From Crocinitomicaceae bacterium (GTDB taxonomy: Bacteria; Bacteroidota; Bacteroidia; Flavobacteriales_D; Crocinitomicaceae), in the NCBI GenBank assembly GCA_024639405.1, contig JAHEIL010000001.1, positions 62,001-126,000 on the forward strand: DNA of 64,000 bases, written 5' to 3'. Positions 14,099 to 53,523 of this stretch are shown here, piece by piece (the first letter of the stretch is position 1; each line of letters opens with the position of its first letter). Made by a program: the position numbers and the translations under genes. Under the pieces are notes generated by a model. It was not told the origin of the DNA. It searched no databases and worked only from the letters and a program-made list of their open reading frames with translations.

Positions 14099-14106
14099 TA
14101 ATTTTG
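14099..14106 (+). promoter_or_regulatory. -7 box of mnmA, four bases before the ATG
   Basis: TAATTTTG fits the Bacteroidota -7 consensus TAnnTTTG. Only CACT separates it from the mnmA ATG, so transcription should begin at or within a base or two of the start codon. No clear -33 box is seen. Confidence 0.6.
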
Positions 14107-14110
14107 CACT

Positions 14111-15289
14111 ATGAAAAGAGTTGTTGTAGGACTTTCAGGAGGTGTTGATTCTAGTGTCGCAGCGCATTTATTGATTCAACAAGGATATGAAGTAATCGGA
14201 ATGTTTATGCGTAACTGGCATGATGAATCCGTAACCATTTCCGATGATTGTCCTTGGATTGATGATTCAAACGACGCTCTTTTAATTGCACAACAATTAG
14301 GAATCCCTTTTCAAGTAATTGATTTAAGCGCAGAATACAAAGATCGCATTGTAGATTACATGTTTAATGAATATGAAGCTGGTAGAACACCCAATCCAGA
14401 CGTTCTTTGTAACCGTGAGATAAAATTTGATGTTTTTTTAAAAGCAGCATTGGAATTAGGTGCAGATTTTGTTGCAACAGGCCATTACTGTAGAAAAATT
14501 GAACATTCAGACGGCACTTTTGGATTGTTAACAGGAAAAGATCCAAATAAAGACCAGTCTTATTTTTTATGCCAATTAAACCAAGAACAACTCAGTAAAG
14601 CATTATTTCCAATTGGTGAACTATTAAAACCTGAGGTTAGAACAATTGCAGCTGAGCTAAATTTAGTTACTGCAGATAAAAAAGATTCTCAAGGCTTGTG
14701 TTTTGTTGGTAAAATTAGTTTGCCACAATTTTTACAGCAAAAATTAATAGCAAAAACAGGTGCAGTCATTGAGATTCCTTCTGATTTAAAACAATTTTTA
14801 GATTACGAAAAGATTCCTTCTACAAGCGAAAACCTAGAGCTACTTTGCAAACCTTTTGAGTACAGCAAAGATCTGGGTCAAGAAGTTGCCCAACATCAAG
14901 GAGCGCATTTTTACACCATTGGTCAACGCAAAGGATTGCATATCGGAGGTAGACCACTGCCCTCTTTTGTAATTGGAACAGACACTGTTAACAACCTTGT
15001 TTTTTCTGGTCAGACAGATGAGCATCCTGGATTGAATAGGATTGCGTTAAAATTAGACGATCAACAAATGAATTGGATCAATCAATCTTATGCGATTTCT
15101 GAAGGGCAGCAATTAGAATGCTTAGTTCGTATTCGATACCGTCAACAATTGCGTCCCGCAACTTTAATTCGAAAAGAAAGTGGTTGTTACATATTGTTCC
15201 CTGAAAAAGAAAGAGGCATTACTCCAGGACAATTTGCAGCGTGGTACATTGAAGATGAACTTGTTGGTTCAGGTGTCATTCATTCTTAG
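14111..15289 (+). CDS. mnmA: tRNA 2-thiouridine(34) synthase MnmA
   Basis: Thiolates U34 of the tRNAs for Lys, Glu and Gln using ATP and sulfur from a persulfide relay. The PP-loop [12 protein letters not shown] is at residues 8-19. The two catalytic cysteines are Cys100 in VLCNREIKF and Cys197 in SQGLCFVG. The domain order (N-type ATP pyrophosphatase, central, C-terminal beta barrel) is normal. At 392 residues it is slightly long because of an insertion around residues 215-255 containing [17 protein letters not shown]. The 3' end overlaps the convergent XRE gene by 14 bases. Confidence 0.97.
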
Positions 15290-24831: not shown

Positions 24832-25479
24832 TTATTTCACAACTTGTTCTAACATTGGTACAAATTTAAACGTGCCCAATTCTTCAGTAATCAATTCGTT
24901 TTCTGCAATTTTGGTTATCAACTTCATGGTTTGCTCACTGCCTTCGCCAACTGGAATAACCATCTTCCCTCCTATTTTCAACTGATCAATTAAAGCTTGA
25001 GGAACATCAGGCGCTCCACATGTCACAATAATTTTATCAAAAGGTGCAAATGTTGGCAAACCTTTATAGCCATCTCCAAATGATAAGCGGGGATTGAAAT
25101 TAAAATCTTGAATGATTTTCTTCGCTTTTAGATACAATTCTTTTTGACGTTCTATAGAAAATACTTTCGCTCCTAATTCACACAGTATGCATGTTTGAAA
25201 TCCTGATCCCGTGCCTATTTCTAAAATCTTATCCCCTTTTTTAACATCTAATAATTGCGTTTGAAATGCAACTGTTATTGGATGCGATATCGTTTGACCA
25301 GCACCAATTTGAAATGCCTTATTACTATATGCTTGTTCTAAAAATGCTAAGTCTAAAAAAAAATGCCTTGGAATCTTAAAAAAAGCATCAAATATTGCTG
25401 GATTTGTAATGCGATTGTCCGCTTTTAATTCTTCAATTAATTGTTTTCTTAGTCCTTTGTGTTTAAATGAATCTTGCAT
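24832..25479 (-). CDS. pcm: Protein-L-isoaspartate O-methyltransferase
   Basis: Repairs age-damaged proteins by methylating L-isoaspartyl residues with S-adenosylmethionine. It is 215 residues long, the family length. SAM motif I is ILEIGTGSGFQTCIL. The family-specific segment before it, IGAGQTISHPITVAFQTQLL, is intact, as are VFSIERQKELY and the VTCGAPDVPQALIDQL motif. The start ATG at 25479 lies only four bases after a TACCTTTG -7 box. Confidence 0.96.
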   Translation of the reverse strand: MQDSFKHKGLRKQLIEELKADNRITNPAIFDAFFKIPRHFFLDLAFLEQAYSNKAFQIGAGQTISHPITVAFQTQLLDVKKGDKILEIGTGSGFQTCILCELGAKVFSIERQKELYLKAKKIIQDFNFNPRLSFGDGYKGLPTFAPFDKIIVTCGAPDVPQALIDQLKIGGKMVIPVGEGSEQTMKLITKIAENELITEELGTFKFVPMLEQVVK

Positions 25480-25483
25480 GATT

Positions 25484-25491
25484 CAAAGGTA
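25484..25491 (-). promoter_or_regulatory. -7 box of pcm, four bases before the ATG
   Basis: TACCTTTG on the minus strand, then AATC, then the ATG at 25479. The spacing predicts a leaderless or nearly leaderless transcript. Confidence 0.6.
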
Positions 25492-43120: not shown

Positions 43121-43128
43121 TATCTTTG
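43121..43128 (+). promoter_or_regulatory. -7 box of the MFS gene, four bases before the ATG
   Basis: TATCTTTG, then CGCC, then the ATG at 43133. The transcript is predicted to be leaderless or nearly so. Confidence 0.65.
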
Positions 43129-43132
43129 CGCC

Positions 43133-44296
43133 ATGTTTGGAGAAAACACTAAAAATTTTTGGATTTTATCTTGCGCCATGTTTTTGTTCATGACAAGTTT
43201 CAATTTAATCCTTCCAGAATTAAACACGTTTATTACAGAATTAGGTGGTGGAAATCAAAAAGGACTTATCATAACTTTATTTACGATTTCAGCTGCCATT
43301 TCACGCCCTTTTTCAGGGAAATTATCTGACACGATCGGACGTAAAAAAGTAATGATTATTGGAATTATCGTTTGCTTCATTGTATCGCTCCTCTACCCGC
43401 TATCATTTTCTATTTGGTTCTTTTTAATCCTACGTTTTTTGCATGGCTTTAGTGCAGGATTCCTTCCAACTGGCGCCACAGCATTGGTAACAGATATTTT
43501 ACCAAAAGAATCGAGAGGTCGTGGAATGGGAATTTGGGGAACCTTTATTTCATTAGGAATTGGTGTTGGTCAATCCATGGGAGATTGGTTATTTCGATTA
43601 TACGGAATGGATAACTTGTTTATTTTTGCAGCTATTATTTCGTTAGTTGCGGCGCTATTAATTGCTTATGTAAAAGAAACACTTGAGGTTCAACAAAAAT
43701 TCAAATTACATCATTTAAGCATTACAGTTCATGATGTTTTTGAGCCGAGTGTATTGCCCGCAGCTTTTGTTATGTTTTTAACAGCATCCTGTTCAGGTAT
43801 AATTTTTGTGTTAACACCGGACATTTCTGATTATTTAGGCATCAATAATAAGGGATGGTTTTTTGGGATATATGTTATTTCAACCATTGTAATTCGCTTG
43901 TTTACTTCATCTCTGTCCGATAAAATAGGTAGAAGAAAAACCTTACTAATTGGAGTTTTCCTCTTAATAGCAAGTATGTTTTTAATTGGTACAGCTCACA
44001 ATTTAACCGCCTATACAACTGCTGCAGTTCTATTTGGAGTTGCTACTGGAATTACAAGCCCAACATTGTTTGCTTGGACAGCAGATTTATCACACAAAGA
44101 TCGAAGAGGAGTTGGTTCAGGAACGATGTTTATTGCTTTGGAATTAGGAATTATGTTAGGTTCAATTTCCACGATTTTCACCTATAACAATCATTTTGAA
44201 ACAATTTATATTGGTTTCAGTTTTGGAATATTAATGGCAGTTTTAGCAGCGACTTATTTAATCTGGCATCTTTCAAAAAGAAAATCGCTTACTTGA
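43133..44296 (+). CDS. MFS transporter
   Basis: A 387-residue inner-membrane transporter with 12 predicted helices in two sixes. The MFS motif A is seen twice: GKLSDTIGRKKVMIIG after helix 2 and SSLSDKIGRRKTLLIG after helix 8. FLHGFSAGFLPTGATALVTDI is the helix 4 region. It resembles drug or metabolite efflux proton antiporters of the DHA1 type; no substrate can be assigned. The stop overlaps the convergent YhhQ gene by eight bases. Confidence 0.92.
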   Translation: MFGENTKNFWILSCAMFLFMTSFNLILPELNTFITELGGGNQKGLIITLFTISAAISRPFSGKLSDTIGRKKVMIIGIIVCFIVSLLYPLSFSIWFFLILRFLHGFSAGFLPTGATALVTDILPKESRGRGMGIWGTFISLGIGVGQSMGDWLFRLYGMDNLFIFAAIISLVAALLIAYVKETLEVQQKFKLHHLSITVHDVFEPSVLPAAFVMFLTASCSGIIFVLTPDISDYLGINNKGWFFGIYVISTIVIRLFTSSLSDKIGRRKTLLIGVFLLIASMFLIGTAHNLTAYTTAAVLFGVATGITSPTLFAWTADLSHKDRRGVGSGTMFIALELGIMLGSISTIFTYNNHFETIYIGFSFGILMAVLAATYLIWHLSKRKSLT

Positions 44297-47008: not shown

Positions 47009-48061
47009 TTAATTTAAATAGTTAAACTTTTGTATTAATTGTTTCCCCTCGAAAAAACAATTTATTTCACATGATCCGATTTTATTTAACAAACTGAAAT
47101 TAATTTTGTTCAATTCATTCTTTTTATCATTTCTCATGATGGCAACAATAATAGCAATTTCTTCCTTTTCAAATGCAATTTGTTTGAAATTTTTACAAAT
47201 AACAGATTTTATTTCATCGAATTCTATTTCTGTAATCTTTTGCTCATCAAGTGAAATGCCAGCTTCAACTAACATTCCCATCGCTACTGCATAACCATGA
47301 CTAATTGGTTCACGCTCCAATAAATACCCTTCAATAGCATGTCCAATAGTGTGACCAAAATTTAATGTTTTTCGACTATTTTTCTCATTCGGATCTTGTT
47401 CAACAATGGAAAATTTAATTCCAACAGAGTCAGCAATGTCTTGTATGGTAATTTGCTCAACTGTTTTATCTTTAATTCTCTCCCAATGGCCTTTGTCAGC
47501 TATCAATCCATGTTTTAACATTTCCGCATAACCATTTCGTTTTTCATCATCTGGGAGTGTTGCGAGAAAAATTGGATCAATAAAAATGGCTTTCGGATGG
47601 TTAAATACACCCAATTGATTTTTATACACACCTAAATCGATACCTGTTTTACCACCAATTGATGCATCTACCATTCCAAGTAAACTCGTAGGAATATGAA
47701 TAAAATCAACACCTCTTTTATAAACTGAAGCAATAAATCCTCCCATATCTGTCACAACACCACCACCTAAATTAAGAATCAAATCATTGCGACCAATACC
47801 ATATTCCGTCAAAGCTTCCCAAACCTGAAAACAAACTTCCATAACTTTATTCTCTTCGCCAGCAGGTAAAAGAATGACTTCAGCATCTTTCAAACAATCA
47901 AATGAAGTCAATAAATATTCTAAACAGAAATCGTGCGTATTTTCATCTACTATGATTACAATTTTAGCTTGTTGATAGTGCTTAGCAATGTATGTTTCTA
48001 ATGAAGATTGTGTAATATCTCCAATTTCTATAAAATAAGATGTTCCTTGTAAATGTTGCAT
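47009..48061 (-). CDS. aroB: 3-dehydroquinate synthase
   Basis: The second step of the shikimate pathway: converts DAHP to 3-dehydroquinate using NAD and a divalent metal. It is 350 residues long. NAD and metal sites: LPAGEENKVME, GGGVVTDMGGFIASVYKRGVDFIHIPTSLLGMVDASIGGKTGID, then AEMLKHGLI and the metal histidines in TLNFGHTIGHAIEG. The start ATG at 48061 lies four bases after a TATATTTG -7 box. Confidence 0.96.
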   Translation of the reverse strand: MQHLQGTSYFIEIGDITQSSLETYIAKHYQQAKIVIIVDENTHDFCLEYLLTSFDCLKDAEVILLPAGEENKVMEVCFQVWEALTEYGIGRNDLILNLGGGVVTDMGGFIASVYKRGVDFIHIPTSLLGMVDASIGGKTGIDLGVYKNQLGVFNHPKAIFIDPIFLATLPDDEKRNGYAEMLKHGLIADKGHWERIKDKTVEQITIQDIADSVGIKFSIVEQDPNEKNSRKTLNFGHTIGHAIEGYLLEREPISHGYAVAMGMLVEAGISLDEQKITEIEFDEIKSVICKNFKQIAFEKEEIAIIVAIMRNDKKNELNKINFSLLNKIGSCEINCFFEGKQLIQKFNYLN

Positions 48062-48065
48062 ACTT

Positions 48066-48073
48066 CAAATATA
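48066..48073 (-). promoter_or_regulatory. -7 box of aroB, four bases before the ATG
   Basis: TATATTTG on the minus strand, then AAGT, then the ATG at 48061. It predicts a leaderless transcript, facing the similar arrangement of proline dehydrogenase across an 88-base gap. Confidence 0.6.
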
Positions 48074-48137
48074 AACTGAATTCAAAGAAAATTAAAGAAA
48101 GTTGTACTGAAATTAATTAAATTGTAATAAAAGAACT

Positions 48138-48145
48138 TATTTTTA
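48138..48145 (+). promoter_or_regulatory. -7 box of the proline dehydrogenase gene, four bases before the ATG
   Basis: TATTTTTA (one mismatch in the last base of TAnnTTTG), then CGGC, then the ATG at 48150. Confidence 0.45.
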
Positions 48146-48149
48146 CGGC

Positions 48150-49322
48150 ATGATTTCATTTGACAATACAGAAATAGCTTTTAAAAGTAAATCAACGGCA
48201 GATTTAACACGAGCATATTGGCTTTTTAAAATAATTGGCAACCCATCTTTAGTGAAGTTTGGTAAATGGGCGACTAATACTGCATTGAACCTTCATCTTC
48301 CAATTAAAGGAATTGTTAAGAAAACAATTTTTAGTCAATTTTGCGGTGGAGAAACGATTTCAGATTGCACAAAAGCAATCAATACTTTATCGAATTTTGG
48401 AATTGGTACAATTTTAGACTATTCCATTGAAGGAAAAACGAGTGATGAAGACTTCAATGCAACAGTTGAAGAAATTATTTCAACGATAAAAGCTGCGGCT
48501 GGAAATACCAAAATCCCTTTTGCTGTTTTTAAAGTTACTGGAATTTCTTCGTTTTCCATTTTAGAAAAAGCCAACGATCTTAATTCAACGCTTTCAACTG
48601 AAGAACAAGAAAAATTAACAGCAATTATTCAACGAATCGACAAAATATGTGCTGCAGCGCATGAAAACAATGTTCCTGTATTTATTGATGCAGAAGAAAC
48701 GTGGATTCAAGACACCATTGATCGCATTACATTCGACATGATGTTGAAATTCAACAAGGAACGAGCAATTGTTTACAACACTTTACAACTTTATCGCCAT
48801 GATCGCTTAGCTTTTCTAAAAGAAGAAATTACGAAAGCAAAAACACACAATATACACTACGGTGTGAAATTAGTACGAGGTGCTTACATGGAAAAAGAAA
48901 GAGATCGCGCACTAAAAATGGGCTACCCATCTCCTATTCAACCTGATAAAACGGCATGTGACAAAGATTTTAATTCAGCCTTGGAATTAATCATTGAAAA
49001 TTTAGATGCAATGGCTTTGTGCGCTGGGTCTCACAATGAAGAAAGCGCCCAAATATTAGCTCAATTAATGCTTCAAAAAGGTATTGCGCCAGCTGACAAA
49101 CGCGTTTACTTTGCTCAATTATTAGGAATGAGTGATCACATTTCCTACAACATGGCTCACGCAGGTTACAATGTTGCAAAATATGTTCCTTATGGTCCTG
49201 TTAAAGAAGTTATGCCTTATTTATTAAGACGAGCAGATGAAAATACATCTGTTGCAGGTCAAACAGGTCGTGAGTTATCGTTAATAATGAAAGAAAGAAA
49301 TAGAAGAAAAGGAATAAATTAA
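48150..49322 (+). CDS. Proline dehydrogenase (single-domain PRODH)
   Basis: Oxidises proline to delta-1-pyrroline-5-carboxylate with FAD. It is 390 residues long, the length of single-domain enzymes rather than the fused PutA. The barrel motifs are present: IDAEETWIQDTID (residues about 175-190), YGVKLVRGAYMEKER, AGSHNEESA, and the C-terminal PYLLRRADENTSVAGQTGRELSLI helix that contacts proline. The P5C dehydrogenase is not encoded nearby. The 3' end overlaps hemF by four bases. Confidence 0.94.
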   Translation: MISFDNTEIAFKSKSTADLTRAYWLFKIIGNPSLVKFGKWATNTALNLHLPIKGIVKKTIFSQFCGGETISDCTKAINTLSNFGIGTILDYSIEGKTSDEDFNATVEEIISTIKAAAGNTKIPFAVFKVTGISSFSILEKANDLNSTLSTEEQEKLTAIIQRIDKICAAAHENNVPVFIDAEETWIQDTIDRITFDMMLKFNKERAIVYNTLQLYRHDRLAFLKEEITKAKTHNIHYGVKLVRGAYMEKERDRALKMGYPSPIQPDKTACDKDFNSALELIIENLDAMALCAGSHNEESAQILAQLMLQKGIAPADKRVYFAQLLGMSDHISYNMAHAGYNVAKYVPYGPVKEVMPYLLRRADENTSVAGQTGRELSLIMKERNRRKGIN

Positions 49323-51978: not shown

Positions 51979-53511
51979 TTATTCCCATTCTATCGTTGCA
52001 GGTGGCTTAGAACTGATATCGTATGTTACACGATTAATCCCTTTCACTTGGTTGATAATTTGATTAGATATTTTCGCTAAAAATTCATACGGTAAGTGAC
52101 ACCAATCTGCTGTCATTCCATCTGTTGAACTTACAGCTCTCAACGCTACAGCATTTTCATACGTGCGCTCATCGCCCATTACACCAACAGATTGAATTGG
52201 TAAAAAGATTGCTCCAGCTTGCCAAACATCATCGTACAATCCATCTTCTTTTAAGCCATTGATAAAAATTGCATCAACTTCTTGTAAAATACGCACTTTT
52301 TCAGCCGTAACTTCACCTAAAATTCGAATACCTAATCCTGGTCCAGGGAAAGGATGACGACCTAACAATGCTTCGTCTATTTGCATCGAACGACCAATTC
52401 GTCGCACTTCATCTTTAAACAATAAACGTAAAGGTTCAACAACTTGTAATTTCATGTAATCTGGTAAACCACCAACGTTGTGGTGCGATTTGATTGTTTG
52501 AGAAGGTCCACCATTAACTGACACAGATTCGATTACATCCGGGTAAATTGTACCTTGTCCTAACCATTTTGCATCGTCAACCAATTTTGATTCTTCATCA
52601 AAAACATCAATAAATACTTTACCAATTGCTTTTCTTTTTAATTCAGGATCTGTTAATCCACTTAATGCAGCATAAAATTTTGAAGAAGCATCTACTCCTT
52701 TTACATTTAAGCCCATGTGTTTGTATGAATCTAACACTTGTTGAAATTCATTTTTACGCAATAAACCATTGTCAACAAAAATACAATGCAAATTTGCGCC
52801 AATTGCTTTGTGCAACAAAACAGCAGCAACAGAAGAATCAACTCCTCCAGACAAGCCTAAAATAACTTTTTCTGTACCTACTTTTTCTTTTAATGCTTTT
52901 ACCGTTTCATCTACAAATGAATCTGGTGTCCAACTTTGATTGCAACCACAAACTGTTACAATGAAATTTTTCAATAAAATCGCACCTTCTAAAGAATGGT
53001 AAACTTCAGGATGGAATTGTATTCCGTATGTTTGCTCTCCTTCTATATGATAACCAGCTACTTCAACATCTTTTGTACTTGCAATAATTGTATAATTTGA
53101 AGGAACTTTTTTAATGGTATCTCCGTGAGACATCCAAACTTGAGAACCGTTTGTCATGCCTTTTGTCAAAACATTATCAGATGAAACATAAGAAAGGTTG
53201 GCACGTCCATATTCACGAATGGAAGAAGGCAATACTTCTCCACCAAAATTATTTGCTAAATATTGAGCTCCAAAACAAACACCCAATAATGGTAATTTTC
53301 CTTTAAACGCAGTCAAGTCTGGTTTAGGAGACGCTTCATCTCTCACTGAAAAAGGACTTCCTGAAAGAATTACGCCCTTAATATTTCCTGTAATCTCAGG
53401 ACATTTATTCCATGGATGAATCTCACAATAAACATTCATCTCTCTCACTCTTCGCGCAATCAACTGTGTGTATTGCGAACCAAAATCAAGTATTAATATC
53501 ATTTCATGCAT
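51979..53511 (-). CDS. guaA: GMP synthase (glutamine-hydrolysing)
   Basis: Converts XMP to GMP. It is about 510 residues long. N-terminal glutaminase: [18 protein letters not shown], nucleophile Cys in [12 protein letters not shown], and [11 protein letters not shown]-pyrophosphatase: [14 protein letters not shown]. The C-terminal dimerisation domain ends [18 protein letters not shown]. Possible starts are the ATG at 53511 and the ATG at 53502. The frame to 53526 overlaps the -7 box and is unlikely. The first fits the same -7-to-ATG spacing of four bases seen elsewhere in the window. Confidence 0.97.
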
Positions 53512-53515
53512 GCTG

Positions 53516-53523
53516 CAAAGATA
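53516..53523 (-). promoter_or_regulatory. -7 box of guaA, four bases before an ATG
   Basis: TATCTTTG on the minus strand, then CAGC, then the ATG at 53511. If the second ATG (53502) is used instead, a leader of about nine bases would remain. Confidence 0.6.

What the first reader, a model, noticed from the sequence alone, without database searches (positions are those of the whole stretch)
14099..14113. Fixed four-base spacing between the -7 box and the ATG in six genes predicts leaderless mRNAs
Six genes carry a TAnnTTTG-type -7 box exactly four bases before a start codon: mnmA (TAATTTTG-CACT-ATG, 14099), pcm (TACCTTTG-AATC-ATG, 25491-25477), the MFS gene (TATCTTTG-CGCC-ATG, 43121), aroB (TATATTTG-AAGT-ATG, 48073-48059), proline dehydrogenase (TATTTTTA-CGGC-ATG, 48138) and guaA (TATCTTTG-CAGC-ATG, 53523-53509). 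In this phylum transcription starts a few bases downstream of this box, so the A of ATG would be the first or nearly first base. Exact repetition of the distance in unrelated genes is unlikely by chance even in AT-rich DNA. It suggests a regular class of leaderless genes.
Basis: partly seen in the sequence, partly recalled or inferred. Interest (0 to 1): 0.6.

Follow-up and report, generated by a model that had tools for sequence, protein, structure and literature searches.

The report
Leaderless gene class in a Bacteroidota
Six unrelated genes carry their promoter box exactly four bases before the start codon, so their messages very likely begin at the start codon itself; the arrangement is real, mostly kept in close relatives, and fits a small class of such genes already reported in this phylum.

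Summary
All six sites lie at the stated places; five have the strict TAnnTTTG box, proline dehydrogenase has TATTTTTA. Spacing four is a sharp peak: 9 of 369 genes in 464 kb of this genome against a shuffle mean of 0.45; outside the discovery window 4 against 0.385. Of 78 further genome hits, 47 open an ORF of at least 60 codons. Gene-start sites avoid G in the box (1 of 56; 15 of 31 non-start hits) and end the spacer in C/T (47 of 56; 168 of 361 other genes), as expected if transcription starts at the A of ATG. In the genus the spacing is kept for guaA (18 of 18 rows), pcm (14 of 16) and proDH (16 of 18), but for aroB in only 2 of 17. In F. johnsoniae 241 of 434 candidate promoters have 4 or 5 nt between box and start (PMC6847099), so these mRNAs are leaderless by inference; no start was mapped here. 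Leaderless mRNAs are a reported minority in the phylum (5.5% in F. psychrophilum, PMC9723704), so the kind is known. Additions: gene identities, the exact peak, deep conservation of guaA, and the aroB difference.

The parts
14099..14106 (+). -7 box TAATTTTG of mnmA, four bases before the ATG
   Evidence: in 15 genus rows (own included) the box is at spacing 4 before ATG in 8, before GTG in 2, as TTTA in 1; at 7 in 3 and 5 in 1
14111..15289 (+). mnmA coding sequence, predicted leaderless start
   Evidence: NF001138 E 4.1e-128
25484..25491 (-). -7 box TACCTTTG of pcm, four bases before the ATG
   Evidence: spacing 4 in 14 of 16 genus rows, one of them TTTA; 6 in 2
24832..25479 (-). pcm coding sequence, predicted leaderless start
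   Evidence: NF001453 E 4.7e-62
43121..43128 (+). -7 box TATCTTTG of an MFS transporter gene, four bases before the ATG
   Evidence: spacing 4 in 10 of 15 genus rows (two TTTA), 5 in 4, no box in 1
43133..44296 (+). MFS transporter coding sequence, predicted leaderless start
   Evidence: PF07690 E 1e-56
48066..48073 (-). -7 box TATATTTG of aroB, four bases before the ATG
   Evidence: spacing 4 only in this genome and G006 of 17 genus rows; 14 rows have the box at 17-24 and one has boxes at 21 and 0
47009..48061 (-). aroB coding sequence, predicted leaderless start
   Evidence: TIGR01357 E 9.1e-95
48138..48145 (+). -7 box variant TATTTTTA of proline dehydrogenase, four bases before the ATG
   Evidence: at the same spacing 10 of 18 genus rows have TTTA and 6 TTTG, 2 have no such box
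48150..49322 (+). proline dehydrogenase family coding sequence, predicted leaderless start
   Evidence: PF01619 E 5.9e-77
53516..53523 (-). -7 box TATCTTTG of guaA, four bases before the ATG
   Evidence: spacing 4 in 18 of 18 genus rows, 3-6 in 39 of 80 named genomes
51979..53511 (-). guaA coding sequence, predicted leaderless start
   Evidence: NF000848 E 1.3e-231; of 63 named loci that could be tested, 33 have the box at 3-5 and no other ATG/GTG/TTG in codons 2-6

Best explanation
Each of the six promoters is a primary-sigma (sigma-ABfr type) promoter whose start point is set about 4 bases downstream of the TAnnTTTG box, on a purine after a pyrimidine. Because the ATG sits there, its A is the +1 base and the mRNA begins 5'-AUG. 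Translation must then start on a 5'-terminal AUG without upstream contact. The six are part of a minority class: 56 genes with the strict box were found among 100 of the 115 genome hits. Shown here: geometry, statistics, base preferences, conservation. Inferred: the exact start site, the missing leader and the mode of ribosome entry.
For: Sharp peak at 4, in the discovery window and outside it; 47 of 78 fetched hits open an ORF of at least 60 codons. In window plus sample 9 of 22 raw hits at spacing 4 are start-like, against 1 of 8 at 7 and 2 of 16 at 10, the frame-matched spacings. Box G 1 of 56 against 15 of 31 non-start hits (p 1.4e-7); C/T at -1 in 47 of 56 against 168 of 361 other genes (p 9.7e-8), 39 of 65 leadered genes and 11 of 31 non-start hits. 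guaA keeps box, spacing and ATG in 18 of 18 genus rows while flanks drift: commonest base on average 0.61 over -40..-13, 0.94-1.00 in the box. pcm orthologs keep spacing 4 where the start lies two codons upstream. Spacing 4 exceeds frame-matched spacing 7 in 105 of 105 genomes of own to class level. F. johnsoniae: 241 of 434 candidates have 4 or 5 nt between box and start (PMC6847099, passages).
Against: No RNA evidence for this organism. guaA sits at spacing 3 in 15 of 80 named genomes, where a strict 4-5 nt rule would start inside the codon; spacings 5-7 occur among orthologs, which would give 1-3 nt leaders. aroB keeps spacing 4 in only 2 of 17 genus rows, and at order level spacing 4 is rare except in guaA and mnmA. 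No -33 element is visible. In leadered genes the base five after the box shows no marked purine peak (A 27, G 3 of 65), so the start position is not independently visible there, and C/T at -1 is also fairly common before their ATGs (39 of 65). The window is richer in such genes than the rest of the sample.
Confidence: 0.87

Rival explanations
1. The mRNAs are not strictly leaderless but have 1-3 nt leaders, because start-site choice slides over 3-7 bases after the box; function is nearly the same. This overlaps with the best explanation, so the odds are not exclusive.
For: F. johnsoniae start sites fall at 4 or 5 nt (PMC6847099); orthologs at spacing 3, 5, 6, 7 exist; Algoriphagus and Mucilaginibacter samples spread over 3-7.
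Against: The peak at exactly 4 is narrow in this genome (3: 0, 4: 9, 5: 2, 6: 1), and 4 is at or above its neighbours in the five other sample sets; C/T at -1 favours starting on the A.
Confidence: 0.25
2. The box serves a start codon further down, so the first ATG is misannotated and the mRNA has a short leader.
For: guaA has an in-frame ATG at codon 4 and its NCBIfam profile begins at residue 5; MFS has ATGs at codons 16 and 20 (L141).
Against: 33 of 63 testable named guaA loci have the box at 3-5 and no ATG/GTG/TTG in codons 2-6. The best pcm and MnmA profiles align from residues 8 and 3. A misassignment would not make a peak at one spacing.
Confidence: 0.05
3. Chance matches in AT-rich upstream DNA.
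For: The raw pattern is common: 115 hits in 2.63 Mb, and 106 at spacing 9.
Against: Start-anchored counts exceed all 200 shuffles inside and outside the window; conserved in most genus orthologs of five of the six genes.
Confidence: 0.01
4. TTTG-NNNN-ATG is a translation signal, not a promoter.
For: The phylum uses bases upstream of the start codon for initiation (A at -3, PMC6847099, passages); -3 is A in 31 of 56 here, but also in 200 of 370 of all genes.
Against: The same box recurs at 14-18 and further upstream in other genes; aroB orthologs carry it at 17-24; G is avoided at the two free box positions as in F. johnsoniae promoters.
Confidence: 0.03

Closest known systems
Leaderless mRNAs of Flavobacterium psychrophilum (Guerin 2021, PMC9723704; passages read)
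   Same: Same phylum and same TAnnTTTG box at -12 to -5; leaderless mRNAs are 5.5% of the mRNAs of 890 CDSs with high-confidence starts
   Different: Measured start sites there, only sequence here; the passages read name no leaderless genes and no conservation across species
Flavobacterium johnsoniae promoters and leaders (Baez 2019, PMC6847099; passages read)
   Same: 4 or 5 nt from box to start in 241 of 434 candidates; TAHHTTTG refinement; 87% of predicted transcripts have leaders over 10 nt, so about 13% have 10 nt or less
   Different: The authors stress that most mRNAs are leadered; the passages read do not analyse a leaderless class
Short leaders of Bacteroides thetaiotaomicron (Ryan 2020, PMC7366714; passages read)
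   Same: About 3.7% of 5' UTRs shorter than 10 nt
   Different: Examples named are transposases, sensor kinases and transporters; the one named guaA record titled Bacteroides (L230) has no strict box within 60 bases
TA-led leaderless genes across bacteria (Zheng 2011, PMC3160421; passages read)
   Same: Infers leaderless genes from a promoter box about 10-12 bp before the start codon
   Different: Used an E. coli promoter reference; the passage read lists Bacteroidetes among clades with many 'atypical' signals, so this phylum's box may have been missed (my inference)

Membership tests
Leaderless mRNA | Promoter geometry that puts +1 on or next to the A of the start codon | tested here: met
   Spacing 4 in 6 of 6 genes with the published 4-5 nt box-to-start distance
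Leaderless mRNA | Mapped 5' end at or within a few nt of the AUG | not testable with these tools
   No RNA data for this organism
Leaderless mRNA | Translation starts at that AUG | tested here: inconclusive
   33 of 63 testable named guaA loci have the box at 3-5 and no other start in codons 2-6; no proteomics
Sigma-ABfr (Bacteroidota primary sigma) promoter | TAnnTTTG -7 box, with G rare at the two free positions | tested here: met
   5 of 6 strict, 1 TTTA; G in 1 of 56 gene-start boxes
Sigma-ABfr (Bacteroidota primary sigma) promoter | TTTG/TTG element near -33 | tested here: inconclusive
   No clear TTG position peak in 56 sites or in 65 leadered genes; also little evident in F. johnsoniae
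Sigma-ABfr (Bacteroidota primary sigma) promoter | Transcription depends on the box | not tested
   Needs reporter mutants

The most novel reading that the evidence does not exclude
A fixed, inherited set of leaderless genes exists in Bacteroidota (guaA, mnmA, pcm, proline dehydrogenase and others), kept leaderless by selection, and gives the cell a separately controllable translation class in a phylum whose ribosomes hide the anti-Shine-Dalgarno sequence.
Probability: 0.25. Interest if true: 0.65.

Novelty: new member of a known kind. Interest (0 to 1): 0.38.

Why it matters
The spacing rule lets candidate leaderless genes be listed from sequence alone in uncultured flavobacteria and relatives. 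guaA is a candidate leaderless gene to test in cultured species of several Bacteroidota orders, and aroB offers a leadered/leaderless pair within one genus. This makes it testable why some genes keep no leader in a phylum that does largely without Shine-Dalgarno pairing.

Tried and rejected
Raw pattern counts as proof: rejected. G000 has 115 hits at spacing 4 (reversed-pattern control 62) but also 106 at spacing 9, probably because coding phase shapes them; I used start-anchored counts and the frame-matched spacing 7 (54). I did not fetch the genome hits at other spacings, so the 47 of 78 has no matched genome-wide control; the matched comparison is within window plus sample.

A -33 element: no clear TTG peak in 56 sites or in 65 leadered genes.

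Purine peak at the expected start point in leadered genes: not seen.

Functional specialisation: Pfam on the 47 fetched leaderless-geometry genes against a random 50 of the 65 leadered genes (chosen). By my own unblinded reading, RNA maturation or modification families are 7 of 47 (MnmE, RnpA, RuvX, DEAD helicase, S4/FtsJ, TrmD, RbfA) against 3-4 of 50 (TsaE, EF-P, YebC, perhaps one helicase); too few to claim a difference, and no test was run.

Phylum-wide rule: rejected. Spacing 4 exceeds 7 in 105 of 105 genomes of own to class level and in 10 of 10 of family f35 (f35 was picked because it looked enriched), but only in 31 of 47 of family f34 (picked because it looked flat). The other 230 of the 392 genomes were not tallied. 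In Algoriphagus and Mucilaginibacter stretches few genes have the box at 3-7 and no single spacing dominates.

Spacing 3 as a lineage rule: raw counts in 10 named genomes did not settle it.

Forbidden short leaders: spacings 6-13 hold 7 genes over 8 positions, not below the shuffle level of about 0.45 per position measured at spacing 4, so no depletion can be claimed.

One search read reverse-strand loci in the wrong orientation and was replaced; I use only the downstream ATGs of L141, which is on the + strand. The tally takes, within 8 codons of the expected start, the start whose box distance is nearest 4, which favours 4; one search lists the rows by the start nearest the expected one. Truncated matches were dropped there (mnmA 1, aroB 2, pcm 2, MFS 2); order rows include three second copies (L139, L170, L358).

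Paper searches for prior reports. One search (leaderless + guaA) gave 4 papers, none on Bacteroidota by title; I saw no listing of a paper on leaderless guaA in this phylum.

Full report
What was checked. The six sites are present at the stated coordinates. Five have TAnnTTTG; proline dehydrogenase has TATTTTTA. Gene assignments were confirmed by NCBIfam and Pfam. The window lies in a 2.63 Mb genome of 52 contigs. The seven best named guaA matches (83-87% identity) are records titled Flavobacteriales, Crocinitomicaceae and, for two MAGs, Chitinophaga pinensis, so the organism is probably a Crocinitomicaceae-like flavobacterium (inference; records of this genome itself may be left out of that collection).

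Is spacing four more than chance? In 464 kb of this genome (window plus 20 stretches of 20 kb at round coordinates of larger contigs) the distance from TAnnTTTG to the first ATG of 370 ORFs of at least 100 aa is bimodal: 9 genes at exactly 4, 0-2 at each other spacing from 0 to 13, then a broad cluster at 14-18. Shuffling the upstream 60 bases with dinucleotides kept gives 0.45 on average at spacing 4, at most 2 in 200 shuffles (369 genes). Without the discovery window 4 are seen against 0.385, at most 2. Genome-wide the pattern with spacing 4 occurs 115 times (reversed-pattern control 62), with the frame-matched spacing 7 54 times; spacing 9 gives 106, probably a coding-phase effect, which makes raw counts weak evidence. 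Of the 100 hits that one search lists, 22 lie in window and sample; I fetched the other 78 and 47 open an ORF of at least 60 codons. With the 9 of the stricter call in window and sample this makes 56 genes. The last 15 hits were not listed and not seen.

Are they promoters that start at the ATG? In the 56 sites the two free box positions hold a G in 1 site; in the 31 fetched hits that are not gene starts, in 15 (p 1.4e-7). The same avoidance of G was found in F. johnsoniae promoters (TAHHTTTG; PMC6847099, passages). The base before the ATG is C or T in 47 of 56, against 168 of 361 other genes (p 9.7e-8), 39 of 65 leadered genes and 11 of 31 non-start hits, as expected if the A is a start point (the pyrimidine-purine preference is recalled). 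The same paper finds 4 or 5 nt between box and start site for 241 of 434 candidates. Against this, leadered genes here show no purine peak five bases after the box, and no -33 element is evident.

Conservation. For each gene 30 genomes were searched, own included, and the matches read upstream, with a tally. Genus rows with the box (TTTG or TTTA) at spacing 4, own genome included: guaA 18 of 18, mnmA 11 of 15 (two of them before GTG, one TTTA; of the other four, three at 7 and one at 5), pcm 14 of 16 (two at 6), MFS 10 of 15 (four at 5, one without box), proDH 16 of 18 (10 TTTA, 6 TTTG), aroB 2 of 17. In the other aroB rows the box lies at 17-24 (14 rows) or at both 21 and 0 (1 row), so aroB differs within the genus: leaderless geometry in this genome and G006, its nearest relative in the set, leadered geometry elsewhere. 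Order rows at spacing 4: guaA 5 of 9 (others 3, 5, 5, 6), mnmA 6 of 11, pcm 1 of 12 (three more at 5-6), proDH 1 of 12, aroB 1 of 11, MFS 0 of 6; outside guaA and mnmA the arrangement fades. In guaA, where no genus row was dropped, the 28 bases upstream of the box average 0.61 for the commonest base, the box positions 0.94-1.00. Among 80 named guaA loci the nearest strict box is at 3-6 in 39 (15 at 3, 20 at 4, 3 at 5, 1 at 6), at 17-44 in 20, absent within 60 bases in 21. Of the 63 loci that could be tested for another start, 33 have the box at 3-5 and no other start in codons 2-6.

Generality. Start-anchored samples of other genomes, with TAHHTTTG, also show counts at 4 and none at 3: 3 of 156 genes in three genus members (5: 2), 4 of 156 in G020 (5: 3), 6 of 153 in G143 (5: 0, 6: 2, 7: 2), 3 of 61 in G062 (5: 0), 1 of 82 in G401 (5: 1); the last is no peak. 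Algoriphagus (1 of 160 at 4) and Mucilaginibacter (2 of 152) are spread over 3-7. By pattern counts spacing 4 exceeds 7 in 105 of 105 genomes of own to class level, in 10 of 10 of family f35 and in 31 of 47 of family f34; these two families were picked after looking at the counts, and the other 230 of 392 genomes were not tallied.

What is known. Leaderless mRNAs are 5.5% in F. psychrophilum (PMC9723704, passages), leaders under 10 nt about 3.7% in B. thetaiotaomicron (PMC7366714, passages), and 87% of predicted F. johnsoniae transcripts have leaders over 10 nt. The finding is thus a well-supported prediction of members of a known class. What may be new is the exact peak read from sequence alone, the deep conservation of guaA and the difference in aroB.

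Mechanism. The step from box to start point is inferred from published spacing and base preferences; the step from a 5'-terminal AUG to ribosome entry is inferred from general knowledge of leaderless translation (a passage on IF2 and leaderless mRNAs, and one on the hidden anti-Shine-Dalgarno sequence of F. johnsoniae ribosomes, were seen in PMC10783764). Whether the class is a regulated unit is open; the function lists do not show it.

Noticed in passing
48062-48149: aroB and proline dehydrogenase diverge from an 88-base intergenic region with a predicted leaderless promoter on each strand.
   Followed up: partly
L083-L097 (aroB orthologs): Within the genus aroB has the box 17-24 bases upstream in 14 of 17 rows but 4 bases in this genome and G006: a natural leadered/leaderless pair.
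   Followed up: yes
L059, L061 (mnmA orthologs): Two relatives have GTG instead of ATG at spacing 4 in mnmA, which would be leaderless GUG starts.
   Followed up: no
L196, L200, L201, L203, L208, L209, L212, L222, L223, L225, L231, L234, L237, L239, L241: guaA in these 15 named records has the box at spacing 3, which a strict 4-5 nt start rule does not explain.
   Followed up: partly
window 1-64000: The window holds 5 strict leaderless-geometry starts in 64 kb against 4 in the other 400 kb sampled; the cause of this density is unknown.
   Followed up: no
L263, L290: Two DUF6495 paralogues each carry a leaderless-geometry promoter with very similar upstream sequence.
   Followed up: no
L171, L173: Two MAG records titled Chitinophaga pinensis carry guaA 87% and 85% identical to this genome's, as close as or closer than the records titled Crocinitomicaceae (83-85% for the best three); the titles may be wrong.
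   Followed up: no
G401: One class-level genome has more hits at spacing 9 (138) than at 4 (88) or 7 (82); it probably reflects coding phase but was not explained.
   Followed up: no
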